A stretch of 36,234 nt of DNA, from positions 1 to 36,234 of the forward strand of contig CAMLKW010000018.1 in assembly GCA_946480605.1 (NCBI GenBank), given 5' to 3'. Source of the stretch: an uncultured Roseateles sp. GTDB taxonomy: Bacteria > Pseudomonadota > Gammaproteobacteria > Burkholderiales > Burkholderiaceae. A model generated the notes under the pieces. It had not been told where the DNA came from. It saw only the letters and a list, made by a program, of their open reading frames with translations, and made no database searches. The position numbers and the translations under genes are program-made. Shown one piece after another: positions 864 through 35,357 of the stretch (positions are counted from its first letter, which is position 1; each line of letters opens with the position of its first letter).

Positions 864-936
864 AATGGGTGGAGCCCCTCGCCAAGTCTGCCGCGCTGGA
901 CGCGGGCGGTCTGGTCGTCCCCCCGAGGGGCGGCGA

Positions 937-961
937 TGCTTGCCGGATTGACCGGCAAGCA
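937..961. promoter_or_regulatory. Inverted repeat upstream of the rhamnogalacturonan lyase, possible operator
   Basis: A perfect 10-bp inverted repeat, TGCTTGCCGG / CCGGCAAGCA, has a 5-nt spacer (ATTGA). With a 2-nt bulge it extends outward to GGCGATG / CATCGCC, covering about 932-968. It lies about 90 bp before the lyase start at 1050, in the only promoter-sized gap at the head of the left enzyme run. It could be an operator for a dimeric regulator or merely an mRNA hairpin. No regulator is assigned, and no convincing -35/-10 pair was seen. Confidence 0.35.
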
Positions 962-1049
962 CATCGCCAGACGGGCCGGCTCGGGAGCGGCCCGGCGCTC
1001 GGCCCGCGCAGATGCACGACGGCCGCTTGATCAAGAAATGGATTGCTGC

Positions 1050-2894
1050 ATGACACGCTCGATCTCCAAACTGGCCTGCGGCCTGATGTTCGCAGTGGCC
1101 GCCACCGCTCAAGCCGATGGCCTCCAGGTCGAAAAGCTGGACCGCGGCGTCGTCGCGCTGGCGACGCCGTCGGGCGTCTTCGTCAGCTGGCGCCTGCTGG
1201 GCACCGAACCGGCCGGCGTGCGCTTCAACGTCTACCGCGACGGCCGGCGGGTCAATGCGCAGCCGCAGGCGCTGACCAGCCTGACCGATGCCGCCGGGCG
1301 CCCCGACAGCCTCTACACGGTGCGCGCCGTCGTCGATGGCCGCGAGCAGGCCGGCGAGGCCGGCGTGGCGCCCTGGGCCCAGCCCTATCTGCGCGTCCCG
1401 GTGCAAAAACCCGAGGGCGGCACCACGCCAGACGGTGTCGCCTACACCTACCAGCTGAACGACGGTGCGCCGGCCGACCTGGACGGCGACGGCCAGTACG
1501 AGCTGGTGGTGAAGTGGCAGCCCACCAACGCCAAGGACAACTCGCAGCGCGGCTACACCGGCAACACCTTCGTCGATGCCTACAAGCTGGACGGCACGCG
1601 GCTGTGGCGCATCGACCTCGGGCGCAACATCCGCGCCGGGGCTCACTACACGCACATCGTGGCCTACGACCTGGACGGCGATGGCCGTGCCGAGGTGATG
1701 ATGAAGACCGCTGACGGCACGGTCGACGGACAGGGCAGGGTCATCGGCGACGCCAACGCCGACCACCGCAACGCGACCGGCTACATCCTGGCCGGGCCGG
1801 AGTGGATCACCGTGTTCAACGGCCTCACCGGCGCGGCCCTGGCCACGGCCGACTACGACCCGCCGCGCGGCGGCCAGGGCGAGGCCTGGGGCGACAGCTA
1901 CGGCAACCGCGTGGACCGCTTCCTGGCCGGCGTGGCCTACCTGGACGGCCAGCGGCCCAGCGCCGTGTTCTCGCGCGGCTACTACACGCGCGCCGTCATC
2001 GCCGCCTGGGACTGGCGCGACGGCAAGCTGAGCAAGCGCTGGACCTTCGATAGCGACCGCGATGCGGCCAGCAAACCCGCCGCAGGGCAGGGCGCGCACT
2101 GGTTCTCGGTGGCCGACGTGGACGGCGACGGCCGCGACGACATCGTCTACGGCGCGGCCACCATCGCCAGCACCGGCAAGCTGCTCTACAGCACCGGCCT
2201 GTGCCATGGCGACGCGCTGCACGTCAGCAGTCACGATCCGGCGCGCGCTGGCCAGCAGGTCTTCATGGTGCACGAGAGCCCGCGCTGCTACGGCGCGCAC
2301 GGCCTGGAGATGCACGACGCCGCCACCGGCAAGATCCTGTGGAGCCTGTCCGGCAACAACACCGACGTGGGCCGCGGCGTCTGCTTCGACATCGACGCCG
2401 CCCACCCTGGTGCCGAATGCTGGGGCAACGTCGGCGGCCTGATGAACGCCAGCGGCAAGCTCATCAGCGACAAGCACCCCAACCGCTACAACTTCGCCGT
2501 CTGGTGGGACGGCGACCTGCTGCGCGAGTCGCTGGACCATGTCGCCATCGACAAGTGGAACCCGGCTTCGTTCAAGTTCGAGCCGCTGTTGAACGGCAAG
2601 GCCTTTGGTGCAGCGTCCAACAACGGCACCAAGGGCAACCCGGTGCTGTCGGCCGACCTGTTCGGCGACTGGCGCGAGGAGGTCGTCTGGCGCAACGACG
2701 ACAGCACCGCGCTGCTGGTGTTCTCCACCGCCATCCCGACCGAACACAGGCTGGTGACGCTGATGCATGACCCGCAGTACCGCGTGCAGGTGGCCGCGCA
2801 GAACGCCGGCTACAACCAGCCGCCGCACACCAGCTACCACCTGGGCGCCGCCATGAAGGCGCCGCGCTACCTGCCCATCCAGACTACGCCATGA
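1050..2894 (+). CDS. Rhamnogalacturonan endolyase, polysaccharide lyase family 11-like
   Basis: The predicted protein has 614 residues, close to Bacillus YesW/YesX-type PL11 lyases. PL11 enzymes cleave the Rha-(1,4)-GalA bonds of RG-I by beta-elimination using calcium. A signal peptide is seen at residues 1-22 (MTRSISKLACGLMFAVAATA...). Next comes a fibronectin-like N-terminal domain, then an eight-bladed propeller with acidic calcium loops: DLDGDG at 143-148 and 207-212, DVDGDG at 356-361. I chose the ATG at 1050 because it gives a clean signal peptide; an in-frame ATG at 1038 and a more upstream one at 936 only add non-signal residues. No strong Shine-Dalgarno is visible, so the start is moderately sure. 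Its stop overlaps the next start (ATGA), suggesting translational coupling. It is probably secreted to the periplasm or outside and opens the RG-I backbone. Confidence 0.92.
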   Translation: MTRSISKLACGLMFAVAATAQADGLQVEKLDRGVVALATPSGVFVSWRLLGTEPAGVRFNVYRDGRRVNAQPQALTSLTDAAGRPDSLYTVRAVVDGREQAGEAGVAPWAQPYLRVPVQKPEGGTTPDGVAYTYQLNDGAPADLDGDGQYELVVKWQPTNAKDNSQRGYTGNTFVDAYKLDGTRLWRIDLGRNIRAGAHYTHIVAYDLDGDGRAEVMMKTADGTVDGQGRVIGDANADHRNATGYILAGPEWITVFNGLTGAALATADYDPPRGGQGEAWGDSYGNRVDRFLAGVAYLDGQRPSAVFSRGYYTRAVIAAWDWRDGKLSKRWTFDSDRDAASKPAAGQGAHWFSVADVDGDGRDDIVYGAATIASTGKLLYSTGLCHGDALHVSSHDPARAGQQVFMVHESPRCYGAHGLEMHDAATGKILWSLSGNNTDVGRGVCFDIDAAHPGAECWGNVGGLMNASGKLISDKHPNRYNFAVWWDGDLLRESLDHVAIDKWNPASFKFEPLLNGKAFGAASNNGTKGNPVLSADLFGDWREEVVWRNDDSTALLVFSTAIPTEHRLVTLMHDPQYRVQVAAQNAGYNQPPHTSYHLGAAMKAPRYLPIQTTP

Positions 2895-3886: not shown

Positions 3887-3891
3887 CCACC

Positions 3892-16455: not shown

Positions 16456-16494
16456 CAGGCTCACTCCATCAAGCACCGGCGCGGCCACCCGCGC

Positions 16495-18314: not shown

Positions 18315-20699
18315 TCAAATGCGTTGCAGTGCGCCGTTGCGGCGCTCGAATCGGGCGGTCTGGCCGGCCGCGAGCTTCAGCGGCAGCTTGCCGCCGCGCC
18401 AGCGCAGCTCGGTGCTGCCGCCATTCTTGCTGGTGATGCTCAGGGCCTGCAGCTCGCCGCCCTGCCAGGCGAAGGCCAACTCGAAGCCGCCACGCGCGCA
18501 CAGGCCGGAGACATTGCCTGCGGGCCAGCCCTTGGGCAGGGCCGGCAGCAGCTGGATGCGGCCGCGGTGCGACTGCAGCAGCATCTCGGCGATGCCGGCC
18601 GCGCCGCCGAAGTTGCCGTCGATCTGGAAGGGCGGGTGGGCGTCGAACAGGTTGGGGTAGCTGCGGCTGGGATGCAGCAGGCGGTTCAGCGTGGCGTAGG
18701 CGTGCTCGCCGTCCTTCAGCCGCGCCCACAGGTTGATGCGCCAGCCTATGCCCCAGCCCGTGGTGTCGTCGCCGCGGCGCTCCATCACGTTGCGCGCGGC
18801 GGCGGCGAAGGCGGGCGTGTCCTCGGGCGTGATCTGCGCCGACGGGTACAGCGCGTACAGGTGCGACACGTGGCGGTGCTGCAGCTCGGGCGCTTCCATG
18901 TCCCAGTCCTCCATCCACTCCTGCAGCTGGCCGGCCTTGCCGATGCGGTCGGGCGGCAGGCGGTCGCGCATGGCCAGGCAGTCGCGCGCGAAGGGGCGGT
19001 CGGTGCGCAGCTCGCGCGCGGCTTCAGCGCAGTAGGCGAACAGGTCGCGCAGCAGCTGGCTGTCCATCGCCGGGCCGGCGCAGACCGAGGAGCCGTGCGG
19101 ATGGCTGTTCTCCGGCGACACGCTGGGGTTGGTGACCATGTGGCCGCTCTTGGGGTCCTTCACCAGCGTGGCGAGCTGGAACTCGGCTGCGCCCTTCAGC
19201 AGCGGGTACAGGCGCTTGAGCACGGCGGGGTCGCGTCGGAACAGCCAGCTCTCCCACAGCGTGTTCACCAGCCACACGCCACCCATGGGCCACAGGCCCC
19301 ACTTGGCGCCGTCGGTCGGCGCGGCGACTCGCCAGCCATCGGTGTTGTGGAAGGCCACCCAGCCCGGTGCGCCGAACATCTTCTGCGCCACGCCGGCGCC
19401 GGTGACGGCCAGGTCCTCCACCATCGCGAACAGCGGCTCCACGGTCTCGCCGATGTTGCACAGCTCGGCGGGCCAGTAGTTCATCTCCGTGTTGATGTTG
19501 ATGGTCCACTTGGACCCCCAGGACGGATTGGTCTTCTCGTTCCACAGACCCTGCAGGTTGGCCGGGAAGCGCGAGCCGGGCCGCGAGCAGGACAGCAGCA
19601 GGTAGCGGCCGTACTGCAGGTACAGCGCGGCGAGACCTGGGTCCTGGCCTTCGGCGAAGCGGGCGATGCGCTCGTCGGTGGGCAGCGTGGCGTTGGGGCC
19701 GGTGCCCAGATCGATGGCGACGCGCTTGAACAGCTTCTGGTGGTCGGCGCGATGGGCCTCGCGCACGGCTTGCGGCCCGCGGGCGACGGCGGCGGCCAGC
19801 GTCTGCCGGTTCAGCGCGGCCGGGTCGGCGGAGATGTCGTCGAAGCGCTTGTAGCCGGTGGCGCCGGCGATGAGGATGAAGACCTCGTCGGCGCCCTGTA
19901 CGAACAGGCCACCGTTGCGCGCCGTGACCTTGCCGCCGCGCGCCACCACCTGCAGCCGGCACTCGAACGGCAGTCGGCCCTCGATGCCGCCCACCGTCGG
20001 GCTGGTGCCCGCCACCCACAGCGTGTGGTTGCCCTCGGCGCCGCTGGTTCTCTGGTGCGGCGCGTTCAGAGTGATGTCCGTGGTGATCCACTTGGGCTTG
20101 TCGGCCGCCAGGCGCACGACGATGAGCTGGTCGGCCGCCGACGCGTAGACCTCGCGCGTCAGCGTCGCGCTGCCGGCGCGAAAGCGCGTGGTGGCCACGG
20201 CCTCGTCCAGGTCCAGGCTGCGCTCGTAGCCGCGCACGCCGTCCAGGCCGGGGAAGACCAGCAGCAGCTCGGCCAGCGGCTGGTAGCTCATCTGGCGGTT
20301 GGGCACGCCCAGCAGCGTCTCGTTGGCCAGCTTCTCGGCCTCGGCATAGCGGCCGGCAAAGATCAGCTCGCGCACCTTGGGCAGGCCTTCGCGCGCCCTC
20401 GGGTTGGCCGTGTCGTAGGGGCCGCCGGAGAAGAGGCTGTTCTCGTTGAGCTGCAGCCGCTCCGTGTGCGTGCCGCCGAACACCATCGCCCCCAGCCGCC
20501 CGTTGCCCACCGGCAGCGCCTGCACCCATTCGTCGGCGGGGCGGCGGTACCAGAGGCGATGGGGCTGGGGCTTGTCGTCCTGCGCGCTGGCCAGGGGAGC
20601 GGCGAGCAACGGGGCGAGCGGCGCGCCGAAACGCAGCAGCCCGGCCTGGGCCGCCTGCTGTTGGAGCCAGTCGCGGCGCGTGGGCTGTTGTCTCTTCAT
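18315..20699 (-). CDS. GH95 family alpha-L-fucosidase / alpha-L-galactosidase
   Basis: The predicted protein has 794 residues, normal for GH95. The N-terminus ([14 protein letters not shown] ... ASAQ) is a Tat-like export signal. The N-terminal beta-domain opens with [19 protein letters not shown], typical of the family. In the alpha-toroid, candidate catalytic residues by analogy with Bifidobacterium AfcA are Asn401 and Asn403 ([12 protein letters not shown]), general acid Glu530 (NPSVSPEN) and Asp694 (FQIDGNFGG); this mapping was made by eye. GH95 enzymes invert and release alpha-1,2-L-fucose, and some pectin-locus members release L-galactose. The start at 20699 overlaps the GH2 stop (ATGA). 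Fucose or L-galactose decorations on RG-I or RG-II side chains are plausible substrates. Confidence 0.93.
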
Positions 20700-23987: not shown

Positions 23988-25376
23988 TCAAATCGAAACC
24001 TCGGCGGCGTTGAGATGGTCGTGCGGTTGCCCAAGCAGCCTGCCCACCGCGACGCGCCTCACCGTCACGCCCCGCACCGGCAGCGAAGCCTCACCGCGCA
24101 AGCGGCTCACATGCTTCGCCTCCACCACCTCAACGTCTGAAACGAACAAGCCCTCAACAGGCGTCAACCGCTTCTCCAGCGTCGGCATCAAGGTCCGCCA
24201 CTGATAGAGCACGTCCGTGTCCACGTCCAGCACGCTGCCCACCAGCCGGTGCGCCTTCACGCGCCGCAGGTGGATGTTGCGCACGAACCCGCCGCGCCGC
24301 TCGTTGGTCTTCACGAACAGCAGGTTGAACAGCTGCACCTTGTGCGTGCTGCCGCGGTTGTCGACCTCGCAGTCTTCCACCAGCACGTCCGAGATGCCGC
24401 CCGCCAGCTCGCTGCCGATGGCCATCAGCTGGTGGCCGTTCAGCACCTTGCAGCGCCGCACGACGATGTGGCGCGACGGCGTGGCCAGGCGCCAGCCGTC
24501 GCGCTCGCGGCCGGACTTGACGGAGATGGCGTCGTCGCCCTGGTCGAAGCTGCAGTCCTCGATGAGCACGCGCTGGCTCATCTCCGGGTCCACGCCGTCG
24601 TTGTTGTGGCCGTGGGCACGGATGTGCACGCCGCGGATCAGCACGTCCTCGCACAGGAAGGGGTGCACGGTCCAGAACGGGCTGTTGACGATGCGCACGC
24701 CCTCCAGCCGCACGCGCTTGCAGCGGTTGAAGTGCAGGAAGGGTGGGCGCAGCTGGGCCTGGCGCCCCAGCTCGCCGTCCGTCATGCGGCGCTCGCTGGC
24801 CGGCACGCCGTCGATGGACATGCGGTACAGCGCCACCAGTGCGTCCATGTGGCCCCTGGGCCGCGCGAACCACTGCTGCCAGACGTCCATCTGCGCCTCC
24901 AGCGTGCCGGCGCCGGTGATGGCGATGTCCTCGCAGCCCTGCGCGTAGACCAGCGGTGAATGGATCATGCACTCCAGCCCCTCCCAGCTCGCCAGCACGG
25001 CGGGCAGGTAGTCGGCCGGGTCGGGCGAGAAGCGCAGCGTCGCGCCGGCGTCCAGGTGCAGGTTGACGCGGCTCTTCAGGTGCACCGGGCCGCTGGGCCA
25101 GACGCCCGCCGGCACGACGACGATGCCGCCGCCCGCGTCGTGGGCGGCACGGACGGCCAGGGCCAGCGCGGCCGAGGTCAGCGCGAGGCTGGCCGGCTGC
25201 GCGCCGAAGTCGGTGATGACGAAGCGCGGCCGGCCGTCGAACACCGGCAGGCGCAGCGGCGGCATGTCGAACGGCGTGCCGCTGACCGCCAGCGTCTGCG
25301 TCGGGAAGCCGGCCCGCGCCGTCGCACAGCCGGCGAGCGCTGCGGTGGCGGCCAGCGCCGCGCGGCGGGTCAGCAT
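23988..25376 (-). CDS. GH28 family polygalacturonase-like lipoprotein
   Basis: The predicted protein has 462 residues. The N-terminus MLTRRAALAATAALAGC has twin arginines and a lipobox (Cys17), so it is an exported, lipid-anchored protein. The body is a parallel beta-helix with GH28 motifs: NND at 258-260 (usual NTD), Asp281-Asp282 (DQGDDAISVKSG) and Gly314-His315 (NGHQLMAIGSE, usual GHG). A FVKTNERRGG segment stands where RIK-type substrate-binding residues are expected. GH28 enzymes hydrolyse galacturonan or rhamnogalacturonan; the motif variants fit an exo- or RG-acting member (inference). The start is set by the lipobox and by a 1-bp overlap with the PL26-like gene (TGATG); the open frame extends further upstream without meaning. 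Confidence 0.9.
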   Translation of the reverse strand: MLTRRAALAATAALAGCATARAGFPTQTLAVSGTPFDMPPLRLPVFDGRPRFVITDFGAQPASLALTSAALALAVRAAHDAGGGIVVVPAGVWPSGPVHLKSRVNLHLDAGATLRFSPDPADYLPAVLASWEGLECMIHSPLVYAQGCEDIAITGAGTLEAQMDVWQQWFARPRGHMDALVALYRMSIDGVPASERRMTDGELGRQAQLRPPFLHFNRCKRVRLEGVRIVNSPFWTVHPFLCEDVLIRGVHIRAHGHNNDGVDPEMSQRVLIEDCSFDQGDDAISVKSGRERDGWRLATPSRHIVVRRCKVLNGHQLMAIGSELAGGISDVLVEDCEVDNRGSTHKVQLFNLLFVKTNERRGGFVRNIHLRRVKAHRLVGSVLDVDTDVLYQWRTLMPTLEKRLTPVEGLFVSDVEVVEAKHVSRLRGEASLPVRGVTVRRVAVGRLLGQPHDHLNAAEVSI

Positions 25377-28126
25377 CACTTCACCAGGCCGGCGGCCTTG
25401 GCCGCCTCGTCCAGCGTGTCGCCGATCAGCGCCAGGTTCTGGATGGCCGCCAGGCCCCATTGCGCGGCGCCGTTGGTGCCTATGCCCGGCTGCTCGTCCA
25501 GCGGGCGCAGCACGGCCACGCCGCCGATGCGCCGCGTCCTTGCGTCGCCCTTCAGCGCTCCGGAGGCGAAGAACTCCCTCCACGCCCGCAGCGCCAGCGC
25601 GCGGTCGCGCTCCTGGAAGGCCGCGTAGGCCGTCATGCGCGAGCCGGTGTCGCCCAGGCTGCGGCCGCCCGGGTCCTTGCCCAGCAGCGCCACGATGTCG
25701 GCCTTGGGGGCGTTGTAGTAGCGGCAGTACTCCAGCCATGCGCGGCGGTAGGCGGGCGCGTCCACCAGCGTCAGCAGCTCGGAGCTCATCTCGATGACGC
25801 CGAACACGCCGTTCAGGTGCGAGATGCTCACCGTGTCGCCCGGCCCGGCGAACTTGCCGGTGCGCGGATCGAACGGGGCGCCGCCGGCGAACCAGCGGCG
25901 CTTGAGCGCGCCGATGCTCTCCATGCCGTTGACGATCTTATCGCGCCAGCGCGTGTCGCCGGTGCGCTCCCATTCGGCCAGCCAGGCGGCGATCAGCGAA
26001 CCCCAGCTGGTGCCGAACGAGGTGTTGATGAGACCGTCCGGCGCCGGCTTGGGCGCCTTGTCGCCGAGCTTGCGCGAGATGTCCACCTTGTCGAGGTCGC
26101 GGTCCGACTCCAGCAGCTCGCGCATCAGGTCGCCCACGCGCTCGTCGGCGGTCAGGAAGTAGTAGATGCGGCGGTAGGCGGCGTTGGACACGCGCGGCTG
26201 CTTGGACGAGTCGGACCAGTGCTGCACGCCGTGCCGCGTGCCGAAGCCCTTGAAGCGGCCCAGGTGGTAGACGTCCACCTCGCCGGTGTGGCGCGTCATC
26301 GCCTCGGCCAGCTTGAACAGGTCGGCGCGGCCGGTGCGCAGGTAGCTCATCCACAGCCACAGGTCGGTGGACAGCTCCGAGTTGTCCCAGGCGTAGCCGC
26401 CGATGTCGTAGCGCCACATGTGGCGGTCGGCGTCGTAGCTGTGCATGACGTCGCCGTAGTTCCAGAAGCCGTACCAGCGGTGCTGCTCGACCTCCTTCAG
26501 GTACTGGTTGAGCTGCTGCGCGGCGCGGTCCTCGATGAGCTTGCGTGCGGGCGTGCCGGTGTCCACCGGGTCCCAGTCGCCGAACACGGCGCAGGCATGC
26601 AGGCGCTGCGGCGTCACCACCAGCCGCGCCGGGTTGGCGACCTGCTCGGCCATGTCCGAGAAGGCCTGGTGCGAGGGCGTGGCGGGCAGCGCCCACAGCT
26701 GCAGCTCGGAGGTGCGGGCGACGCCGTGGGCGTCGTCCCAGCCGGGCTCGTAGTCCTCGTAGGTGATGTTGAGGCCCTCGACCTGCTTCTCGAACGTGTC
26801 CATGTCGCCGGGCGAGCGGTAGGAGCGCATGTCCATGGCCGGGGCCGACGGCGACCACAGCCAGGCGGTGACCTCGGCCGTCGGCGTGGCCGCGCCGCGC
26901 ACGTCCAGCCGCACGGGCGCACGCTGCCAGAAGTCCTTGAAGCCCAGCGCCACGCCGCCGGACGCGCCGCCGGCGTAGACCAGGCCCTTGTTGCGCGTGC
27001 CCGCGTTGGACGCGATCCAGGCCTGGCCCGGCGCGGTGCGCTTGTTCAGCGTGTAGCCGTCGGGGCTGGACTGCGACAGCGAGAAGTCGCTCCACTCCGG
27101 GATCCACTGCAGCCGGTCCGACACGCGCTTGTCCATGCCGGAAAGCGGCGGCAGCGCCCGACCGGCGACCTGGGCGTCCTTGAACGCCTGGCCGGGGTCG
27201 CGGCGCAGGCCGGTGACGGGCCGCACGGCCTCGCCCCAGACGCCGACGCCTTCGCCGGTGAAGCGCACGTGGCGGTCGTAGGAGGCGTCGGTCATGGGCA
27301 CCTGGGCGGTGACACCCAGGCCGGCGATGAAGTCCTTGGCCGGCACGCCGTCGAAGACGAAGCTGTGCACGATGCGCACGCTGTCCGAGCCGGCGTAGAA
27401 GTACAGCCGCACCGAGAACGGCAGCCACTCGCGGCCGTGGCCGCTGTGCATGCCGTCCAGCTTGACGACCGCGCGCACGGGGCCGCGCTGCTCGACGGTG
27501 ACGGCGGTGACCTTGCTGGTGAAGGCCTGGCGCGCGACGCCGCCTTCGCCCTCCAGCTCGGCGCCGTCCTGGCGCAGCGCGACCAGCTTGACGGCCTTCA
27601 GCGTGGTGCGGCCGGCGCGTGTGGCCTCGGCGATGAGGTGCTCGCCGCGGGTGGGGATGGTCCAGCTCAGCTCACCGGCCGTGACGAGGATCTGCGCGTC
27701 GGTCTGCTTGACGCCGACATTGCCGGCCGTTCCGGCCGACGGGGCGCCGGGCTCCAGCTTCAGGCCCGCGGCGGGCGTGCCGCCGGCGACCGCGTGGGCG
27801 GTCCACTTCAGCGAGCCGTCGGGCCAATAGGCCAGCGGCCAGGACTGCACGGGCAGGTTGGACCCGGCCAGGCGGAACTGCAGTGCCTGCCCGGCCGCGG
27901 GCTTGCGAACCTGGCCGCGCGGCCAGGGCACGCCCAGCGTCGTGCCCTCGAAGCGGGCGGGCGGCGCACCGTCCAGCCAGGGCAGGGCGGTGTCGGCCAC
28001 CGGCGCACCGGGCTTGCTGGACAGGTTGGCCGTGGCGGCATGGCTCAGTGGCGGCAGCGCGCCGGCGAGCGAGACCGCCGCCGTGGTCTGCAGGAAGCCA
28101 CGGCGGGAACTTTTCGTCGATTGCAT
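25376..28126 (-). CDS. Exo-rhamnogalacturonan lyase-like protein (PL26 / PcRGLX family)
   Basis: The predicted protein has 916 residues with a Tat signal (SRRGFLQTT, residues 7-15). The layout matches the Penicillium RGLX family: an N-terminal RIFT-barrel domain (about 45-330; FEGTTLGVPWPRGQV, WPLAYWPDGSLKW), then a large (alpha/alpha) catalytic domain containing WYGFWNYGDVMHSYD, YAWDNSELSTDLWLWM, YHLGRFKGFGTRHGVQHWSD and NGVFGVIEMSSELL. PL26 removes unsaturated galacturonosyl-rhamnose units from the RG-I end by beta-elimination. It sits between GH2 and GH28 genes. GGAG precedes the ATG by about 6 nt. PL11 attacks internally and this enzyme exo-wise, so the pair would be complementary. Family assignment is from memory of motifs. 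Confidence 0.87.
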   Translation of the reverse strand: MQSTKSSRRGFLQTTAAVSLAGALPPLSHAATANLSSKPGAPVADTALPWLDGAPPARFEGTTLGVPWPRGQVRKPAAGQALQFRLAGSNLPVQSWPLAYWPDGSLKWTAHAVAGGTPAAGLKLEPGAPSAGTAGNVGVKQTDAQILVTAGELSWTIPTRGEHLIAEATRAGRTTLKAVKLVALRQDGAELEGEGGVARQAFTSKVTAVTVEQRGPVRAVVKLDGMHSGHGREWLPFSVRLYFYAGSDSVRIVHSFVFDGVPAKDFIAGLGVTAQVPMTDASYDRHVRFTGEGVGVWGEAVRPVTGLRRDPGQAFKDAQVAGRALPPLSGMDKRVSDRLQWIPEWSDFSLSQSSPDGYTLNKRTAPGQAWIASNAGTRNKGLVYAGGASGGVALGFKDFWQRAPVRLDVRGAATPTAEVTAWLWSPSAPAMDMRSYRSPGDMDTFEKQVEGLNITYEDYEPGWDDAHGVARTSELQLWALPATPSHQAFSDMAEQVANPARLVVTPQRLHACAVFGDWDPVDTGTPARKLIEDRAAQQLNQYLKEVEQHRWYGFWNYGDVMHSYDADRHMWRYDIGGYAWDNSELSTDLWLWMSYLRTGRADLFKLAEAMTRHTGEVDVYHLGRFKGFGTRHGVQHWSDSSKQPRVSNAAYRRIYYFLTADERVGDLMRELLESDRDLDKVDISRKLGDKAPKPAPDGLINTSFGTSWGSLIAAWLAEWERTGDTRWRDKIVNGMESIGALKRRWFAGGAPFDPRTGKFAGPGDTVSISHLNGVFGVIEMSSELLTLVDAPAYRRAWLEYCRYYNAPKADIVALLGKDPGGRSLGDTGSRMTAYAAFQERDRALALRAWREFFASGALKGDARTRRIGGVAVLRPLDEQPGIGTNGAAQWGLAAIQNLALIGDTLDEAAKAAGLVK

Positions 28127-28151: not shown

Positions 28152-29993
28152 TCAGCGAGCCTGGCTCTTGTAGTGTTCGGCCATCACGTCGAAGGCCTGC
28201 TTGCGCTGGCCGGTCTCGGAGATCAGGCCCTTGCGGTTCCAGCCGTTCTGGAAAACGGGGTGCTCGCGGCGCGGCGACTTGAAGTCCTTCAGCACCCAGG
28301 GCGACAGGCCGCGCAGGTTGGGGATGGTCGCCAGCATCTTCAGCGTGGCGCGGTAGTAGGCGGCCTGGAACTCCTCACTCCATTTCTTCGGCTCGGCACC
28401 CAGGTCGTGGTGGCCGGCCAGTGCGTCGGCGCCGAACTCGGAGATGAGCAGCGGCTTGGTCGTCGGCAGGTCCCAGCGCACCTTGGCGAGGTCCGCCAGG
28501 CTGTCGTTGCCGTACCAGCCCGCGTAGGTGTTGACGGCCATCACGTCCAGGTGCGGCAGCAGCGGGTCGGCGATCTTGACCGTGTAGCCCTCGCGCTCCA
28601 CCAGCAGCGCGGCGCTGATGAGGCGGCTGGGGTCCAGCTCGCGCACGGTGGCGGCCAGCGCGGCGTGGAAGCGCGTGCGGTTCTCGGCCACCGGCGTTTC
28701 GTTGCCGACGCTCCACAGCGCCAGCGCGGCGCGGTTGCGGTCGCGGTAGATGGTCTCGGCCTGCTGGCGGCGGGCCTTCAGCAGCACGGCGGGGTTGTCC
28801 CAGTCCACGGTCCAGTAGACGGGAATCTCGCTCCAGACGATCAGGCCCAGTTCGTCGGCCACGCGCAGCATGGTCTCGCTGTGCGGGTAGTGCGACAGGC
28901 GCACGTAGTTGCCGTTCAGCCCGGTCTTGACCTCGTTCAGCAGCGCGCGCGCGGCGGACTCGGTCATGCGGCGGGCCGGGTTGCTGCCCAGCTCCTCCTC
29001 GTGGATGGACACGCCGCGCAGCGTGACGGGCTTGCCGTTGAGCAGGATGTCGGCGCCCTTCACGGCCAGCGTGCGAAAGCCGATGCGGTCGTTCACGGCG
29101 TCGGCGCCTGACGCAAAGCGCACCGCGTACAGCTGGGGCGACTCCGGCGACCAGAGCTTGAGCGTGGCCGGTGCAGGGATGTCGAAGCGCGCCTCGCCGT
29201 TGGCGTCGGTGGTCGCCTGCGCTTTCAGGTCCAGTCCATCGATCTGCACGCTGACCGGCTGGTTGCCGGCCTGCGCGCCGTTGAGCTGCAGGCTGCCCAC
29301 CAGGCGGCCGGCGTCGGTGAGGCGCAGCGTGGCGTCGTCGATGAAGGTGGCGGGCGTCTGGATCAGCCTCACCGGCCGCGTGATGCCGCCATAGAGGTCC
29401 CAGTCGGTGATCTCGCCGGGGATGCTCTGCGCGTCGTGCCTGGAATCGACGCCGACGACGAGGCGGTTGCCGCTGGCGCGCAGCGCCTCGGTCACTTCCA
29501 GCACGAAGGGCGTGAAGCCGCCTTCGTGTCGGCCGACTTCCTTGCCGTTCAGGTAGACGTAGGCGTGGTAGTTGACGCCCTCGAAGCGCAGGAAGCTGCG
29601 TGTGCCGGCCTTGGGCGCAGGCAGGTCGAAGCGGCGCTGGAACCAGATCAGCCCGTCGTACCAGCGCAGTTCCGGCTCGGCCGCGTTCCAGGCGCCGGGG
29701 ATCTGCATGCCGGGCGCGCGGTCGAGGTCGAACTCGAAGAAGCCGGTGCCGGGCTTGGCCTCCTCGGCGGCGATGTCCACGTCGCGGTGGCGCTGCATGC
29801 GCGACTTGGCGACCCAGCCGTTGATGTCGGTGAGGCCCGTGCGGTAGTAGTCCTTGGAGTAGGTCCAGCGGCCGGACAGGTCCTGCACCTCGGTGCGCTG
29901 GCCGGTCAGGAGCAGCAGCGGGCGGAGGTTGTCGGCAGCGGCGAAGGCGGGCGAGGCGATCAGCGCCAGCAGGGCCAGGGCGCGGCGGATCAC
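28152..29993 (-). CDS. GH2 family glycosidase (beta-glucuronidase/beta-galactosidase-like), GTG start
   Basis: The predicted protein has 613 residues, compact like bacterial beta-glucuronidases. A signal peptide covers about 1-19 (MIRRALALLALIASPAFA). GH2 domains in order are sugar-binding jelly roll (about 75-210, with GLIWFQRRFDLP and EITDWDLYGGITRPV), an Ig-like domain (about 215-310) and the TIM barrel. Both catalytic glutamates are present: acid/base Glu432 (LWSVGNET) and nucleophile Glu519 (LLISEFGAD). The start is a GTG overlapping the GH51 stop (GTGA); the open frame upstream of it overlies GH51 and has no signal. Glucuronate or galactose residues on RG-I side chains are likely substrates, and the compact form favours glucuronidase. 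Confidence 0.88.
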   Translation of the reverse strand: MIRRALALLALIASPAFAAADNLRPLLLLTGQRTEVQDLSGRWTYSKDYYRTGLTDINGWVAKSRMQRHRDVDIAAEEAKPGTGFFEFDLDRAPGMQIPGAWNAAEPELRWYDGLIWFQRRFDLPAPKAGTRSFLRFEGVNYHAYVYLNGKEVGRHEGGFTPFVLEVTEALRASGNRLVVGVDSRHDAQSIPGEITDWDLYGGITRPVRLIQTPATFIDDATLRLTDAGRLVGSLQLNGAQAGNQPVSVQIDGLDLKAQATTDANGEARFDIPAPATLKLWSPESPQLYAVRFASGADAVNDRIGFRTLAVKGADILLNGKPVTLRGVSIHEEELGSNPARRMTESAARALLNEVKTGLNGNYVRLSHYPHSETMLRVADELGLIVWSEIPVYWTVDWDNPAVLLKARRQQAETIYRDRNRAALALWSVGNETPVAENRTRFHAALAATVRELDPSRLISAALLVEREGYTVKIADPLLPHLDVMAVNTYAGWYGNDSLADLAKVRWDLPTTKPLLISEFGADALAGHHDLGAEPKKWSEEFQAAYYRATLKMLATIPNLRGLSPWVLKDFKSPRREHPVFQNGWNRKGLISETGQRKQAFDVMAEHYKSQAR

Positions 29994-31624
29994 TGCTGCA
30001 CCTCGATGACCAGCACCGACTTGGCCGGCAGCGTCAGCGCCAGCGTGCCGTTCTTCGCTTCGGCCTTGAAGGGCTGGGGCTTGACGCGGTCCGGCGCATC
30101 GAACCAGTTCTGGGCGTCCATCGCGGCAGCGGTCATCAGCTGGCCGCTCACGGCGCGCACGCCCTTGCCGCCGACGGCGAGTTGCACGGGCAGGTCCTGG
30201 CGCGGGTTGACGTTGGCGAGGCTCAGGATGAGCTTGCCGTCCGTTGACCGAGCGGCGCTGGCGCTGAGCGCGGGGATGCGGTAGTTGCCGTTCGGGCAGA
30301 CGAGCGAGGCGGGCGCGCAGACGGGCGTGGGCGTCGGGTAGATGGGCACGCCGGTCAGCACCGGCACCGTGGGAATGCCCTTGGGCAACTGGTAGCTCGG
30401 CACCTCGCTCATCTGCACGGGCAGCGAGGTGGCATCCATGAAGGGCAGGTGCATCGCGAACGCGTGGTAGGTCGGCGTCAGCACCATGCGCTCCTTGTCC
30501 GTGACGATCATGGCCTGCAGCACATTGACCATCTGCGCCATGTTGGCCATCTTCACGCGCTCGGCATGGCGGTGGAACACATGGAAGTGCAGCGCGGCCA
30601 GCACCGCGTCGCGCAGCGTGTTGCGCTGCACGAGGAAGCCGGGGTCGGTGCCGGGCTCGGGGTCGTACCAGCTGCCCCACTCGTCGAAGTAGATCGCGAA
30701 CTTCTTGGCCGGGTCGTTGCGGTCCAGGATCTCGCGGTGCTTGGCGAGGTAGCCGTCAATGGTCTGCGGCACGGCCAGCGTGGAGATCCACTCGGCCTCG
30801 GGGAAGCCCACGGCCGCGCCCTTCTTCTTCCAGTCGCGCGTGGGCAGCGAATACTGGTGGTGCGTGATGGCGCTCATCTGCTTGATCTCGGCGCTGAGCG
30901 TCTCGGTCCAGTGCAGCTCCAGCTCCTGGCCGCCGCTGGCGACGAGCTTGGGCCGGTTGCCGCGCGGTGCCTTGGCGAAGGTGGCCCACTGCTTGTAGAG
31001 GTCGGCGTAGTAGCTCGGCTTCATGTTGCCGCCGCAGCCCCAGCTCTCGTTGCCTATGCCCCAGTAGTGCACCTTCCAGGGCTGGTCGCGGCCGTTGGCG
31101 CGGCGCTCGCGGGCCAGCGCGGTGTCGCCCTCGGCCGTCAGGTACTCCAGCCATTGCGCCATCTCCGCCACCGTGCCTGAGCCCAGGTTGGCGTTGATGT
31201 AGACCTCGGTGCCGAGCTGGTCGGCCAGGTCCATGAACTCGTGCGTGCCCACCGTATTGGGCTCGATGACGCCGCCCCAGCTGGTGTTCACGCGCGGCGG
31301 GCGGCTGGCCTGCGGGCCGATGCCGTCGCGCCAGTGGTATTCGTCGGCGAAGCAGCCGCCGGGCCAGCGCAGCACCGGCACCTTGACCGCCTTCAGCGCG
31401 TTGACGACGTCGCTGCGCCAGCCGCGCACGTTGGGAATCTTGCTGTCCGTTCCCACCCACAGGCCGCCGTAGATGCCTGACCCGAGGTGCTCGGCGAACT
31501 GGCCGTAGATCTGGCGCGCGATGACCGGGCCGGGCTTGTCGGCCTGGATGTCGATCTTGACCGGTTCCGCCGCCTGCGCAGCGAGTGAGAGTGACAGGCT
31601 GAAGGCGGGGAGCAGGTGTTTCAT
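29990..31624 (-). CDS. GH51 family alpha-L-arabinofuranosidase (exported)
   Basis: The predicted protein has 544 residues with a signal peptide at about 1-18. The GH51 TIM barrel carries acid/base Glu193 (YWGIGNESWGCGG) and nucleophile Glu315 (IYFDEWGSWY), plus family blocks VLRWPGGCFADEYHWRDGIGP and NMAQMVNVLQAM. A C-terminal jelly roll follows (about 400-544). GH51 retaining enzymes remove terminal alpha-L-arabinofuranose from arabinan and arabinogalactan. Many bacterial GH51 enzymes are cytoplasmic, so the signal peptide is noteworthy. The ATG at 31624 overlaps the upstream gene's stop (ATGA); an alternative ATG at 31630 adds two residues and breaks that pattern. Confidence 0.93.
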   Translation of the reverse strand: MKHLLPAFSLSLSLAAQAAEPVKIDIQADKPGPVIARQIYGQFAEHLGSGIYGGLWVGTDSKIPNVRGWRSDVVNALKAVKVPVLRWPGGCFADEYHWRDGIGPQASRPPRVNTSWGGVIEPNTVGTHEFMDLADQLGTEVYINANLGSGTVAEMAQWLEYLTAEGDTALARERRANGRDQPWKVHYWGIGNESWGCGGNMKPSYYADLYKQWATFAKAPRGNRPKLVASGGQELELHWTETLSAEIKQMSAITHHQYSLPTRDWKKKGAAVGFPEAEWISTLAVPQTIDGYLAKHREILDRNDPAKKFAIYFDEWGSWYDPEPGTDPGFLVQRNTLRDAVLAALHFHVFHRHAERVKMANMAQMVNVLQAMIVTDKERMVLTPTYHAFAMHLPFMDATSLPVQMSEVPSYQLPKGIPTVPVLTGVPIYPTPTPVCAPASLVCPNGNYRIPALSASAARSTDGKLILSLANVNPRQDLPVQLAVGGKGVRAVSGQLMTAAAMDAQNWFDAPDRVKPQPFKAEAKNGTLALTLPAKSVLVIEVQQ

Positions 31625-32379
31625 CGGCATTGGAGGATTTGGAAATCTCTGATCTGCAAGCGGCTGGCCGTTGTCCTCAGCGCGAAGTAGCCGTGCAGGC
31701 GTGGATTGGCGTCTGCGCGTGTAAAGAGTTCGTTGCTGCCGGCGCGCCAGCGCAGGTGAACAGCGTTGTCGGACGTGGGGCGACGCGAAACAATCTCGAC
31801 GGTGAGCGGTTGGCCCAGGTGCAGACGGGTCTGCGGCGTCATCGGCCGCTCATGCGGCTCGGCGATGGCGCCGTCCGCAAAGCCCGCCAGCAGCCGCTTC
31901 TCGCTGCCGGTGTAGTGGCGCAGCCGGCTCGTCATGTTGGCGTTGGCGCCGAAGCCGACGTAATAGGTCGGCAGCGTGTCGTAGCCGGCGAACTTGCCGC
32001 TGCGCGGGTAGGGCTCGCTGCCGTCCAGTTCGAGCGCATTCCAGAACATGTTGAGGTCCGAGATGCGGCCGGCGTGTTCGCCGGCAGTGGCGGGCGCGGG
32101 CAGGGCCACGGCGGTGAAGCGGATGGCGTAGTCGCCGCTCAGCGGCTGGCGCCACCACAGCGACAGGCCGGCGGGCGTGGCGATATCCAGCACGCCGTTC
32201 TCGGCCGTGACGACGGCGCGCGCGTCCTCGGCCTCCAGCCGCCAGCGCGTGAGGCCAGCGCGGAAGTCGTCAGCGGCAACCGTTTCGAGCTTGCGCGGCG
32301 CCTCGCACCACGCGGCGGCTGCCAGCGGCAGCAGCGCGAGCGTCAGCCCGCAAAGTGAAAGACGGACGGCAGGTCCCAT
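31621..32379 (-). CDS. DUF6250-like exported jelly-roll protein, function unknown
   Basis: The predicted protein has 252 residues with a signal peptide at about 1-23. The rest is beta-rich, as in concanavalin-A-like jelly rolls: DDFRAGLTRWRLEAED near the start, ISDLNMFWNA (106-115), then YDTLPTYYVGFGANANMT (133-150), SRLRHYTG and a closing GYFALRTTASRLQIRDFQI. These blocks match the DUF6250 family as I remember it, for which I know no proven activity. Aromatic and Asn/Arg residues cluster in the conserved blocks, as expected of a sugar site. It overlaps rhaM by 37 bp and GH51 by ATGA, so it belongs firmly to the operon. It could be a lyase, a glycosidase or a binding protein. Confidence 0.75.
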   Translation of the reverse strand: MGPAVRLSLCGLTLALLPLAAAAWCEAPRKLETVAADDFRAGLTRWRLEAEDARAVVTAENGVLDIATPAGLSLWWRQPLSGDYAIRFTAVALPAPATAGEHAGRISDLNMFWNALELDGSEPYPRSGKFAGYDTLPTYYVGFGANANMTSRLRHYTGSEKRLLAGFADGAIAEPHERPMTPQTRLHLGQPLTVEIVSRRPTSDNAVHLRWRAGSNELFTRADANPRLHGYFALRTTASRLQIRDFQILQCR

Positions 32380-32666
32380 TGGCGCGGCTTGTTGTCGGGT
32401 TCCACTTCCATCAGCGGGGCCATGTAGTCCCACCAGCGGCGCATGACGGGCAGCGTGGGCAGCTCGTCGATGGGAAAGCCGGCTTTCAGCTTCAGCACCG
32501 CGAACAGGCTCAGCGTGCTCTCGTCCAGGAAGATGGAGTAGTCGTGGATGCCGGCGCCGCGCAGCGCCTCGGCCAGGTCGGGCCACAGCTCGTCGTGGCG
32601 CTTCTTGTACTCGGCGACCACGCCGGGTTTGAGCTGCATCTTGAAGGCGCGAATCTCGTCGCTCAT
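32343..32666 (-). CDS. rhaM: L-rhamnose mutarotase
   Basis: The predicted protein has 107 residues, the normal length for RhaM/YiiL. It is cytoplasmic with no signal. The ferredoxin-like family pattern is clear: MQLKPGVVAEYKKRHDELWPDL with candidate catalytic His24, IHDYSIFLDE, LFAVLKL and MRRWWDYMAPLME. It interconverts the alpha and beta anomers of L-rhamnose to feed the isomerase. AGGAGA lies 7 nt before the ATG, which defines the start within a longer open frame. It shares 37 bp with the DUF6250-like gene. Together with rhaI and the aldolase/dehydrogenase fusion it shows that rhamnose is the monosaccharide consumed by this locus. Confidence 0.95.
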   Translation of the reverse strand: MSDEIRAFKMQLKPGVVAEYKKRHDELWPDLAEALRGAGIHDYSIFLDESTLSLFAVLKLKAGFPIDELPTLPVMRRWWDYMAPLMEVEPDNKPRQWDLPSVFHFAG

Positions 32667-32676
32667 TCGTTGTCTC

Positions 32677-34059
32677 CTAAAGGATGTCTTGTTCAGCCAT
32701 CGGTCGGTCGGAAACGTCGCGCCGTTGCAGCGCTGCGTCCGCATGCCAATGGGATGAGGCCAGCCCGTCGAGCTGGCAGCTGGTTCCCGCCGCGATGGGC
32801 TCGCCCAACTGCAGGCGGCAGGCCGCGTCGAAGTGCCAGGCCAGCGCGTCCTGCACATGGCCGCCGCGCGCGGCCTCGATGTCGAGCGCGCGGAAGTCGA
32901 AGCGGCGCAGCGGCACCTCGGCCGTCGCGTCCACCTCGAACGCGGTCTGCGCACCGCGTGCGACGAGGCGCTGGATGCGCACGCCTTCGACGCGCGTGCG
33001 GCCCCGTTCGCGCGGCACGGGCTGGGCCAAGGTCTGCCAGTGGGGCGGGGCGTTGGGCAGCTCCGCCGCGGGGATCCGTGCCTGGCTGTAGGCGGGATTC
33101 CAGTTCATCGTCGCGCGCATGGCGACCGGCACGCCCAACAGCGTCAGGTCGCCGATGGACACGTCCTCGACGAAGCCGCCGCGCGTCGGTGCGCTCTTGA
33201 AGAGCAGGCCGACCGGCACCGGCGCATGCACCTCGATGCGCTGGGCGTTGATGCGCCGCAGGCCACCCGAGGTCTCGCTGCCGAAGGTCAGGCCCGCCGC
33301 GCCCTCGCGGACGATGCAGTCGCTGATGCTGATGTCCTCGCAGACGCGAGCGACGCGCAGGCCATCGGCGTCGCGGCCGGCCTTCAGGCACAGCGCGTCG
33401 TCGTTGACGGCGATGTCGGCGTGGCGGATGGTCACGCGGCGCGACGAGTCGATGTCGATGCCGTCGGTGGACGGGCCGTGCGCGTCCTCGTTGTTGCGGA
33501 TGGTGACGCCGTCAACAGTGATGTCCTCGCTGTAGCAGACGTGCAGTGTCCAGAAGCCCGAGCGGCGCAGCAGCAGGCCGTCGCCAATGTTCACGCGGGC
33601 GGACTCGAAGACCTGGATCAGGCGGGGCCGCTGGCAGTCGTAGTCCGACGCCCAGCGCAGGCCGCGCGGCTCGTAGGTGGCACGCAGCGCCCAGTAGCTG
33701 TCCCAGAAGACCTTGCCGTCGCCGTCGATGCAGCCTTCGCCCACGAGGCCCACGTCGTGCTCGCCGTAGATGTTGACGAGTGCCGCCGGCCAGCGCATCT
33801 CGATGCCAGCCACACGGGTGGGCAGCAGCGGGTAGTCGATCAGGTGGCGTGAGCCCAGCAGCGTGGCGCCGCGGTCCAGCCGCAGCGTCATGCCGCTCTT
33901 CAGGAACAGCGCGCCGGTCAGGTAGACGCCGGGGCCCAGACGCAACTCCGCGCCCTGCAGGGCCGCCGCGTCGATGGCGGCCTGCAGGGCGCGGGTGTTG
34001 AGCGTGCACCCGTCACCGCGTGCACCGTAGGCCTGCGCTTGCACGCAAGCCCGCGTCAT
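32677..34059 (-). CDS. GH28-like hydrolase without signal peptide (cytoplasmic)
   Basis: The predicted protein has 460 residues and starts MTRACVQAQAYGARGDG with no export signal. The parallel beta-helix and GH28 motifs are present but altered: STDGID (197-202, usual NTD), Asp220-Asp221 (NDDALCLKAG), and EGAAGLTFGSETSGG (252-266) where GHG is normally found, so the conserved His is absent. LLFKSAPTRGG follows. Rhamnogalacturonan-specific GH28 enzymes are known to lack parts of the polygalacturonase signature, which suggests action on imported RG-I oligosaccharides (inference). It lies between rhaI (TGATG overlap) and rhaM, in the intracellular catabolic part of the operon. A release of rhamnose or galacturonate from oligomers would fit. 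Confidence 0.83.
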   Translation of the reverse strand: MTRACVQAQAYGARGDGCTLNTRALQAAIDAAALQGAELRLGPGVYLTGALFLKSGMTLRLDRGATLLGSRHLIDYPLLPTRVAGIEMRWPAALVNIYGEHDVGLVGEGCIDGDGKVFWDSYWALRATYEPRGLRWASDYDCQRPRLIQVFESARVNIGDGLLLRRSGFWTLHVCYSEDITVDGVTIRNNEDAHGPSTDGIDIDSSRRVTIRHADIAVNDDALCLKAGRDADGLRVARVCEDISISDCIVREGAAGLTFGSETSGGLRRINAQRIEVHAPVPVGLLFKSAPTRGGFVEDVSIGDLTLLGVPVAMRATMNWNPAYSQARIPAAELPNAPPHWQTLAQPVPRERGRTRVEGVRIQRLVARGAQTAFEVDATAEVPLRRFDFRALDIEAARGGHVQDALAWHFDAACRLQLGEPIAAGTSCQLDGLASSHWHADAALQRRDVSDRPMAEQDIL

Positions 34060-35357
34060 CAGACGATGCCGGAGCCGGAGGCGCCCGCCTTGGGCGGACG
34101 CTTGACGGCCACCTGCTCGCGATAGCCGGCAGCGCGGTAGGCCGCCACCGGGTCGATCGCGCCGCCCGAACGCAGGCGGGCCATCGCCAGGATGGGGCTC
34201 ACGTCGGTGCGGAAAGCCTTCTTCAGCGTCTGCGCGGCCTGCAGCACGTCGTTGCTTTCCTGGAAGCCGGCCAGCGCGGCGCGGTCCACCAGCGCGGCCT
34301 GCACGAAGGCGCGCTGCACTTCGACGGCGCTGCTCATCAGGCTCTCGATCGGATCGGTCACGTTGTGCGACTGGTCCAGCATGTACGACGGGTTGAACGC
34401 CGCGCCGTCACGGGCCTGCGAATCGGCCAGCTCGTTGAAGATCAGGAAGAGCTGGAACGGGTCGATGGAGCCCGAGTCCAGGTCGTCATCGCCGTACTTG
34501 CTGTCGTTGAAGTGGAAGCCACCCAGCTTGCCGAACTGCGCCAGGCGGGCCACGATCATCTCGATGTTGGTGTTGGGCGCGTGGTGGCCCAGGTCCACCA
34601 GGCACTTGGCCTTCGGGCCCAGGGTCTGCGCGACGGCAAAGCTGGTGCCCCAGTCGGCGATGACGCTGCAGTAGAACGCCGGCTCGAACAGCTTGTGCTC
34701 GATGTACATCTGCCAGTCGTCGGGCAGCGCTGCGTAGATGCCCTTGGCGCTGTCGATGTAGCGCTCCAGCGCGCCACGCAGGTTGCTCTGGCCGGGGAAG
34801 TTGGCGCCGTCGCCCACCCACACCGTCAGGCCCTTGGAACCCAGCGTCTTGCCCAGCTCGATGCAGTCGATGTTGTGCTGCACGGCCAGCTCGCGCGAGG
34901 CCTTGTTCGTGCTGGTCAGGCTGCCGAACTTGTAGGTGGCGGACTGGCCGGCCTGGTCCTGGAAGGTGTTGGAGTTGACGGCGTCGAAGCCCAGGCCCAG
35001 CGAGTCGGCCTGTTCACGCAGACCCTTGGGATCGGTGGGCTTGTCCCACGGGAAGTGCAGCGACACGGCCGGCGTGGCGCGCGTCAGCTGGTTGATGACG
35101 GCGCAGTCTTCCAGCTTCTCGGTCACGTCACGCGGCTCGCCCTTGCCGGGGAAGCGCGCGAAGCGCGTGCCACCGGTGCCGGCGCCCCAGCTGGGCACGG
35201 CCACGCCGAAGGTCTGGGCCTTGGCGGTGAGGGCCTCGATGTCCACGCCGCGGCGGGACAGCATGCCGCCCAGCGCGTCGTAGTCGGCCTGCAGCTCGGC
35301 GCGCTGCTTGGCGTTGTGTTGCTCGACCTGGCCGGCGTCAATCATTTGCTTGGTCAT
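34059..35357 (-). CDS. rhaI: L-rhamnose isomerase (Pseudomonas stutzeri type)
   Basis: The predicted protein has 432 residues, against 430 in P. stutzeri RhaI. It converts L-rhamnose to L-rhamnulose in the cytoplasm. The metal-site residues known from that enzyme occur here with a one-residue offset: Glu220, Asp255, His258, His282, Asp290 and Asp328 (MYIEHK, VDLGHHAP, GGFHFND, MLDQSHN). The ATG at 35357 has GGAG 7 nt upstream and gives the family N-terminus MTKQMIDAGQVEQHN; a longer open frame to 35420 adds an unrelated prefix. It lies 28 bp after the aldolase/dehydrogenase fusion and overlaps GH28 by TGATG. It also accepts other sugars in related enzymes, but the context says rhamnose. Confidence 0.96.
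   Translation of the reverse strand: MTKQMIDAGQVEQHNAKQRAELQADYDALGGMLSRRGVDIEALTAKAQTFGVAVPSWGAGTGGTRFARFPGKGEPRDVTEKLEDCAVINQLTRATPAVSLHFPWDKPTDPKGLREQADSLGLGFDAVNSNTFQDQAGQSATYKFGSLTSTNKASRELAVQHNIDCIELGKTLGSKGLTVWVGDGANFPGQSNLRGALERYIDSAKGIYAALPDDWQMYIEHKLFEPAFYCSVIADWGTSFAVAQTLGPKAKCLVDLGHHAPNTNIEMIVARLAQFGKLGGFHFNDSKYGDDDLDSGSIDPFQLFLIFNELADSQARDGAAFNPSYMLDQSHNVTDPIESLMSSAVEVQRAFVQAALVDRAALAGFQESNDVLQAAQTLKKAFRTDVSPILAMARLRSGGAIDPVAAYRAAGYREQVAVKRPPKAGASGSGIV

What the first reader, a model, noticed from the sequence alone, without database searches (positions are those of the whole stretch)
31621..32379. Uncharacterised DUF6250-like protein locked into a rhamnose/RG-I operon
The gene overlaps rhaM by 37 bp and GH51 by ATGA, so its expression is tied to rhamnose and arabinan use. 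It has a signal peptide and a jelly-roll-like pattern with conserved aromatic and polar blocks (ISDLNMFWNA, YDTLPTYYVGFG). No activity is known to me. It is a good candidate for a new polysaccharide lyase, glycosidase or binding protein acting on RG-I.
Basis: partly seen in the sequence, partly recalled or inferred. Interest (0 to 1): 0.72.

Follow-up and report, generated by a model that had tools for sequence, protein, structure and literature searches.

The report
Lyase-partner protein in pectin operon
A small, apparently exported protein of unknown function in a pectin-degrading gene cluster looks like a relative of the Bacillus protein YesU, and its family often sits beside enzymes that cut acidic sugar polymers, which makes it a likely but untested extra step in breaking those polymers down.

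The parts
31621..32379 (-). DUF6250 protein, 252 aa
   Evidence: (PF19763, 135.4 bits)
32311..32379 (-). putative signal peptide, residues 1-23
   Evidence: hydropathy scan; no dedicated predictor available
32035..32067 (-). motif RISDLNMFWNA (residues 105-115); the pattern [RM].SD.N.FW is in 260 of 263 family proteins
31912..31983 (-). motif YDTLPTYYVGFGANANMTSRLRHY (residues 133-156) with conserved Y133, Y140, N148, R152, R154, Y156
32343..32666 (-). rhaM, L-rhamnose mutarotase, overlaps DUF6250 by 37 bp
   Evidence: PF05336; TIGR02625 97.6 bits, just under its cut-off of 99.6
29990..31624 (-). alpha-L-arabinofuranosidase (GH51-type; family number recalled), ATGA overlap with DUF6250 (alternative ATG at 31630)
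   Evidence: PF06964
28152..30011 (-). GH2 enzyme (start chosen by me), nearest NCBIfam model beta-glucuronidase, below its cut-off
25376..28126 (-). PcRGLX-like rhamnogalacturonan lyase (called PL26-type here; family number recalled), the recurring partner class
   Evidence: PF21346 577 bits, PF21345 486 bits
32677..34059 (-). GH28, nearest NCBIfam model rhamnogalacturonidase, below its cut-off
34059..35357 (-). xylose-isomerase-like barrel, probable L-rhamnose isomerase (name recalled)
   Evidence: PF01261
35386..36201 (-). SDR-type dehydrogenase (its frame runs off the window), probably rhamnose catabolism (recalled)
936..2894 (+). PL11 rhamnogalacturonan lyase, same window, opposite strand, about 29 kb away
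   Evidence: PF21348 773 bits

Best explanation
The protein is an exported (here probably periplasmic) member of a YesU-like group of ConA-fold proteins (DUF6250 with DUF1961). It works alongside polysaccharide lyases that cut uronate polymers by beta-elimination. Here the lyase is the PcRGLX (PL26-type) rhamnogalacturonan lyase of the same gene run, and the sugar ends it handles are galacturonate-rhamnose oligosaccharides. A conserved arginine/asparagine/tyrosine/tryptophan set is inferred to hold the uronate carboxylate. The most likely role is catalytic, on the uronate at an oligosaccharide end, and the favoured chemistry is C4-C5 elimination (a uronyl dehydratase or small oligo-lyase) that turns saturated ends into the unsaturated ends which GH88/GH105 enzymes need. 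Shown by calls: gene, predicted fold, family relation, lyase context, conservation. Inferred: export, uronate binding, a single pocket. Guessed: the reaction.
Against: No activity data. The only biochemistry found for the group is binding, not catalysis (YesU). Much of the conserved polar set is not kept in YesU: D108, N110, Y140, N148, R152 and Y156 align with Leu, Met, His, Glu, Asn and Ser, so the two families need not share a reaction. No match to a known lyase model in Pfam or NCBIfam. In 6 of 31 loci no lyase was seen in the fetched stretch, and two genomes (G007, G009) have DUF6250 but no PL11, PcRGLX or GH88/105 match; in G009 the gene loses its frame near the end. One copy (L033) lacks a hydrophobic N-terminus. 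Most proteins come from two clades taken from lists capped at 120, so invariance there is partly kinship. Conserved residues were not placed in 3D. Chondroitin as substrate rests on annotation: the L038 lyase scores far below the NCBIfam chondroitinase-AC cut-off (72.8 vs 1000).
Confidence: 0.4

Rival explanations
1. Non-catalytic glycan-binding protein: a periplasmic lectin that captures lyase products (relieving product inhibition of the lyase or handing oligosaccharides on).
For: The closest fold match, YesU, binds glycans with KD from 0.14 to 7.6 uM, and its authors mention interaction with some GAGs and GAG fragments; many of the fold matches shown are lectin or CBM domains; PMC8511951 states that lyase products inhibit ulvan lyases.
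Against: A dense, nearly invariant set of D, N, Y, W, R side chains over loci for polymers with different neutral sugars is, in my judgement, more than lectins usually keep; YesU lacks a signal peptide by its authors' SignalP test, odd for the surface adhesin they propose.
Confidence: 0.36
2. Unsaturated uronyl hydrolase standing in for GH88/GH105.
For: 4 of 12 DUF6250 genomes gave no GH88/105 match, two of which (G008, G010) carry a DUF6250-PL11 pair.
Against: 8 of 12 genomes have GH88/105; a GH88-family gene is next to DUF6250 in L032 and one lies in the Vibrio diabolicus locus; the B. subtilis control genome rings for both GH88/105 and DUF1961. Absences may be assembly gaps.
Confidence: 0.08
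3. A 3-keto-glycoside eliminase/hydratase like DUF1080 proteins.
Against: The window protein itself has no DUF1080 match at 0.001; 9fbe is far below YesU in Z; no sugar 3-dehydrogenase type was seen among the window proteins scanned, which were not all of them.
Confidence: 0.07

Closest known systems
YesU of Bacillus subtilis (DUF1961, PDB 1oq1)
   Same: Best fold match, profile-level homology through a DUF1961 protein, RG context (beside an RG acetylesterase gene, PMC6120924), aligned Arg133/Arg200
   Different: YesU has no signal peptide (PMC6120924); the window protein has no Pfam match to DUF1961 at 0.001; D108, N110, Y140, N148, R152 and Y156 of DUF6250 are not kept in YesU
P29_PDnc oligosaccharide dehydratase (PMC8511951) and BcGDH/GH154 uronate dehydratase (PMC12269599)
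   Same: Accessory genes in uronan-lyase loci that act on the uronate at oligosaccharide ends for GH88/105
   Different: Other families: P29_PDnc homologues were predicted through PL37 and GH154 is unrelated to P29_PDnc by sequence; a sequence relation of either to DUF6250 was not tested here
DUF1080 / 3-keto-disaccharide hydrolase family (PF06439)
   Same: ConA-like fold group; weak profile hits from DUF6250 and DUF1961 relatives
   Different: The window protein is not matched at 0.001; different gene context
PL7, PL18, PL20 and other ConA-fold lyases (recalled)
   Same: Fold class and uronate substrates (recalled)
   Different: No profile match in Pfam or NCBIfam; residue arrangement could not be compared

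Membership tests
DUF6250 (PF19763) | Profile score above Pfam cut-off over the full domain | tested here: met
   135.4 vs 26.9 bits, profile 1-165
DUF1961 / YesU (PF09224) | Profile score above Pfam cut-off | tested here: not met
   No match at E<=0.001 for the window protein; no DUF1961 match in 12 of 12 DUF6250 genomes searched
YesU-like superfamily | Same fold and profile-level homology | tested here: met
YesU-like superfamily | Predicted YesU ligand residues kept | tested here: inconclusive
   R154 and R235 align with Arg133 and Arg200, but several other conserved DUF6250 residues are not kept in YesU; the YesU site itself is a prediction
YesU-like glycan binding | Direct binding of glycans | not testable with these tools
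   needs purified protein
3-keto-disaccharide hydrolase (PF06439) | Profile score above Pfam cut-off | tested here: not met
   Window protein: no match at 0.001; three of five DUF6250 relatives scanned hit it below the cut-off, 13.1, 22.4 and 18.6 vs 26.8
GH88/GH105 unsaturated uronyl hydrolase (PF07470) | Profile match | tested here: not met
   Only DUF6250 matched at 0.001
Known polysaccharide lyase families | Profile match to a lyase model in Pfam or NCBIfam | tested here: not met
   these libraries need not hold a model for every lyase family
ConA-fold lyases (PL7, PL18, PL20 ...) | Fold plus catalytic residue arrangement | tested here: inconclusive
Uronyl dehydratase (P29_PDnc, BcGDH) | Dehydration of saturated uronate ends, 232-235 nm signal | not testable with these tools
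   needs an assay
Uronyl dehydratase (P29_PDnc, BcGDH) | Sequence homology to P29_PDnc or BcGDH | not tested
   their sequences were not fetched

The most novel reading that the evidence does not exclude
DUF6250 and DUF1961 (YesU) together are a third, unrecognised class of cofactor-free uronyl dehydratases or oligo-uronide lyases on a ConA fold, serving as a general partner of beta-eliminating lyases for RG-I, chondroitin and ulvan; YesU would then be a pectin enzyme rather than a gut adhesin.
Probability: 0.2. Interest if true: 0.8.

Novelty: new variant of a known kind. Interest (0 to 1): 0.55.

Why it matters
A domain of unknown function gets a testable role: it travels with lyases for what look like three kinds of uronate polymer (RG-I, chondroitin, ulvan), and it is tied to YesU, whose published role (adhesion through fucose binding) fits poorly with its gene neighbours. 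If catalytic, it would fill a missing step in the breakdown of these polymers and change how such loci are read; if binding, it would show a shared product-capture protein for lyase systems.

Tried and rejected
Rejected or weakened: (1) RG-I-only role: chondroitinase- and ulvan-lyase-type loci. (2) GH88/105 substitute as the general role: 8 of 12 genomes have GH88/105, as has the Vibrio locus. (3) Identity with P29_PDnc: the paper predicts its homologues through PL37. (4) Sequence search of PDB: the window protein alone gave five hits at E 0.081 to 0.59, three of them antibody chains, taken as chance; the alignment gave none up to E 10. (5) Own-genome search: none held. (6) The second protein search, with alignment A1, found 288 proteins but listed only the best 120, without distant members. 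(7) KduI was found in 4 of 12 genomes, no clear pattern. (8) One regular expression matched 0 of 263 because its spacing was wrong; it is not used. (9) One search was an empty query of no use. (10) The label 'rhamnogalacturonan endolyase' given by one source to 29 of 120 listed relatives (hand count) was not used as evidence. (11) Papers looked at and not used: PMC8780550 (one passage: DUF1961 named once in a table of a fungal secretome) and PMC12343721 (passages: no DUF). Literature searches on PL43/PL44, on PL26 with hypothetical proteins, on lyase families with DUFs and on yesU with yesT gave nothing further used (listings only). (12) ConA-fold lyase families such as PL7, PL18 or PL20 were not seen among the 50 rows shown in each, which does not exclude them.

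Full report
Observation. The reading frame at 31621-32379 (minus strand) is a complete 252-aa gene with an ATG start; it shares 37 bp with rhaM, and its TGA stop overlaps an ATG of the GH51 gene as ATGA. Pfam gives DUF6250 at 135.4 bits, and the neighbours are rhaM, an arabinofuranosidase (GH51-type), GH2, a PcRGLX lyase, GH28, an isomerase-type barrel and an SDR. I call the PcRGLX proteins PL26-type and the annotated chondroitinases PL8-type; these two family numbers are recalled, not from a call. A hydropathy scan shows a signal-peptide-like start in 11 of the 12 DUF6250 proteins scanned; no dedicated predictor was at hand. There is no NCBIfam match at E 0.01, and 0 papers of the held library contain the word DUF6250.

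Which links are conserved. The scan of genome contigs gave 19 loci, titled Pelomonas, Roseateles, Paucibacter, Uliginosibacterium and the like. rhaM is directly upstream of DUF6250 in 12 of 19 (L001-L012). In the 9 that were checked base by base the overlap is exactly 37 bp in 9 of 9, with an ATGA-type end in 7 of 9, whatever gene follows. GH51 is the best hit at its downstream side in only 3 of 19. So the tie to rhamnose use is kept in this clade and the tie to arabinan is not. Outside it the family is rare in the samples searched: 4 of 299 Pseudomonadota genomes (two of them already in hand), 2 of 300 genomes of the order of G303 (both already known), and 1 of 247 of the order of G231 above the cut-off. 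Of 14 control genomes only Bacteroides ihuae rings.

Gene context beyond this clade. DUF6250 genes lie next to PcRGLX genes in L032 (with an ATGA overlap, and followed by GH88-family and PL22 genes), in L033 (a TonB receptor, PcRGLX, DUF6250 set), in Hymenobacter L034 and Sphingomonas L035, and in L041 and L053. In L015, L017 and L019 the next gene is PL11, and in L013 a PL11 gene faces it. In Bacteroides finegoldii L038 the next gene is annotated as a chondroitinase-family lyase, in a region with another chondroitinase-annotated gene and three proteins with a PL29-type N-terminal domain; its NCBIfam chondroitinase-AC score is far below the cut-off. In Vibrio diabolicus the gene lies in a locus with two annotated chondroitinase-family lyases, sulfatases, GalNAc PTS genes, kduI, kduD and GH88. 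In two Persicobacter plasmids it lies beside a protein related to Uly1040 (E 5.4e-33; L054 copy 63% identical), which is a PL40 ulvan lyase by the title and abstract of PMC12915356.

Counts. I hold 31 separate DUF6250 loci outside the window (L001-L019, L032-L041, L053, L054; L020-L031 are shorter copies of places already counted). A PcRGLX, PL11, chondroitinase-type or PL40-like gene is in the fetched stretch of 25 of 31, most of them plus/minus 8-10 kb (by tblastn; the Vibrio one by annotation); other lyase families were not counted. It is the next gene in 13 of 31. The six without are L007 and L010 (rhamnose cluster present), L039 and L040 (uronate or sulfatase genes nearby), L014 and L018. 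The last two belong to G007 and G009, which gave no match to PL11, PcRGLX or GH88/105; L018's gene loses its frame near its end. In 10 of 12 genomes a PL11 or PcRGLX domain lies within about 7 kb of DUF6250 (my reading of coordinates). By a rough estimate this is far above chance for genomes of 4-6 Mb with one to a few such domains, but it was not tested formally, and about half of these genomes are close kin by their record titles. These loci were found through DUF6250, not through lyases. Of the 10 genomes one (G010) has a second DUF6250 gene above the cut-off, about 4 kb from its PcRGLX gene.

The YesU side. Two DUF1961 genes turned up in 247 genomes of one order. One (L048/L055) lies between a PcRGLX gene and rhaM, in an island with PL22-like and GH88-like genes (tblastn matches). 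The other (L057) lies beside a protein that matches the PL25 ulvan lyase structures at E 9.1e-105. None of the 12 DUF6250 genomes has a DUF1961 match; the B. subtilis control has DUF1961 and is not named as ringing for DUF6250. So the two families look interchangeable next to lyases; the sample is small, and a wider search did not complete.

Residues. In 263 family proteins (254 from the capped lists and from loci, plus 9 plasmid proteins; the broken L018 and L040 were left out) W75, D108, W113, Y140, N148, R152 and R154 are present in all, N110 and R235 in 262, R105 and Y133 in 261, Y156 in 260. Most of these proteins come from two clades. In 14 diverse proteins from RG-I, chondroitinase and ulvan-lyase loci 17 columns are invariant, among them D108, N110, W113, Y133, Y140, N148, R152, R154 and R235 (given here in full-length numbering). 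Against YesU, R154 and R235 align with Arg133 and Arg200, which its authors list as predicted ligand residues, and W75 and Y133 with Trp51 and a Tyr; but D108, N110, Y140, N148, R152 and Y156 align with Leu, Met, His, Glu, Asn and Ser (the chain numbering is shifted by 3).

Function. YesU was shown by array and SPR to bind fucosylated glycans, with KD from 0.14 uM, and the authors mention GAG fragments; they propose adhesion, although YesU has no signal peptide (PMC6120924, parts 1-3 of 6 and passages). The recurring partner of both families is a lyase that leaves unsaturated uronate ends, over polymers whose neutral sugars differ. That points at the uronate as the shared thing handled. Two unrelated families in such loci are already known to dehydrate saturated uronate ends for GH88/105: P29_PDnc (PMC8511951, parts 1-3 of 5) and BcGDH, formerly GH154 (PMC12269599, abstract, passages and one section). 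DUF6250 keeps the same kind of company and has a residue set that could serve elimination chemistry. I therefore favour an enzyme on uronate ends (0.40 for the whole statement) over a pure binding protein (0.36), by a narrow margin. A GH88-family gene is present in the same locus in L032 and in the Vibrio locus, so replacing GH88/105 is not its general role.

Against this. No assay exists; YesU's only data are binding; most of the conserved polar set is not shared with YesU; 6 of 31 loci show no lyase; two genomes have DUF6250 without PL11 or PcRGLX; kinship and capped lists inflate conservation; and no known lyase model is matched. Work on DUF1080 (PMC9007349, passages) reports or proposes enzymes with that domain; since DUF1961 and some DUF6250 relatives hit that profile, catalysis in this fold group is plausible but not shown for DUF6250.

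Noticed in passing
L048/L055 (G491), L057 (G384): The two DUF1961 (YesU-family) genes found in 247 genomes of one order lie beside a PcRGLX gene plus rhaM and beside a PL25 ulvan lyase relative.
   Followed up: partly
L018:10001-10600: The DUF6250 gene of G009 loses its frame near the C-terminus, in a genome with no PL11, PcRGLX or GH88/105 match.
   Followed up: no
L040:7962-8367: Vibrio navarrensis plasmid DUF6250 is annotated in two pieces, a few genes from a transposase-domain gene, in a GalNAc-PTS/sulfatase locus.
   Followed up: no
L036:10673-13423 and L054:9019-11688: Persicobacter proteins related to the PL40 ulvan lyase Uly1040 (the L036 one has no Pfam match); a second, about 26-27% identical copy lies in each locus.
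   Followed up: partly
L033:8417-9145: DUF6250 copy with no hydrophobic N-terminus although the start of its PcRGLX partner looks Tat-like.
   Followed up: no
window 13464-14855: 463-aa protein with FPGAEGEGA..GGRGG near its start, which resembles PL1 pectate lyases from memory, but Pfam gives only a TSP3 repeat.
   Followed up: no
window 14857-16488, 18315-20666, 2935-6306: Apiosidase-like, GH95 and GH115 matches: the window as a whole looks like a broad pectin/hemicellulose locus.
   Followed up: no
relatives P0135-P0254: One source names 29 of 120 listed DUF6250 proteins 'rhamnogalacturonan endolyase' (hand count); origin of the label unknown.
   Followed up: no
G007-G010: Four DUF6250 genomes without any GH88/105 match, two of which have a DUF6250-PL11 pair.
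   Followed up: partly
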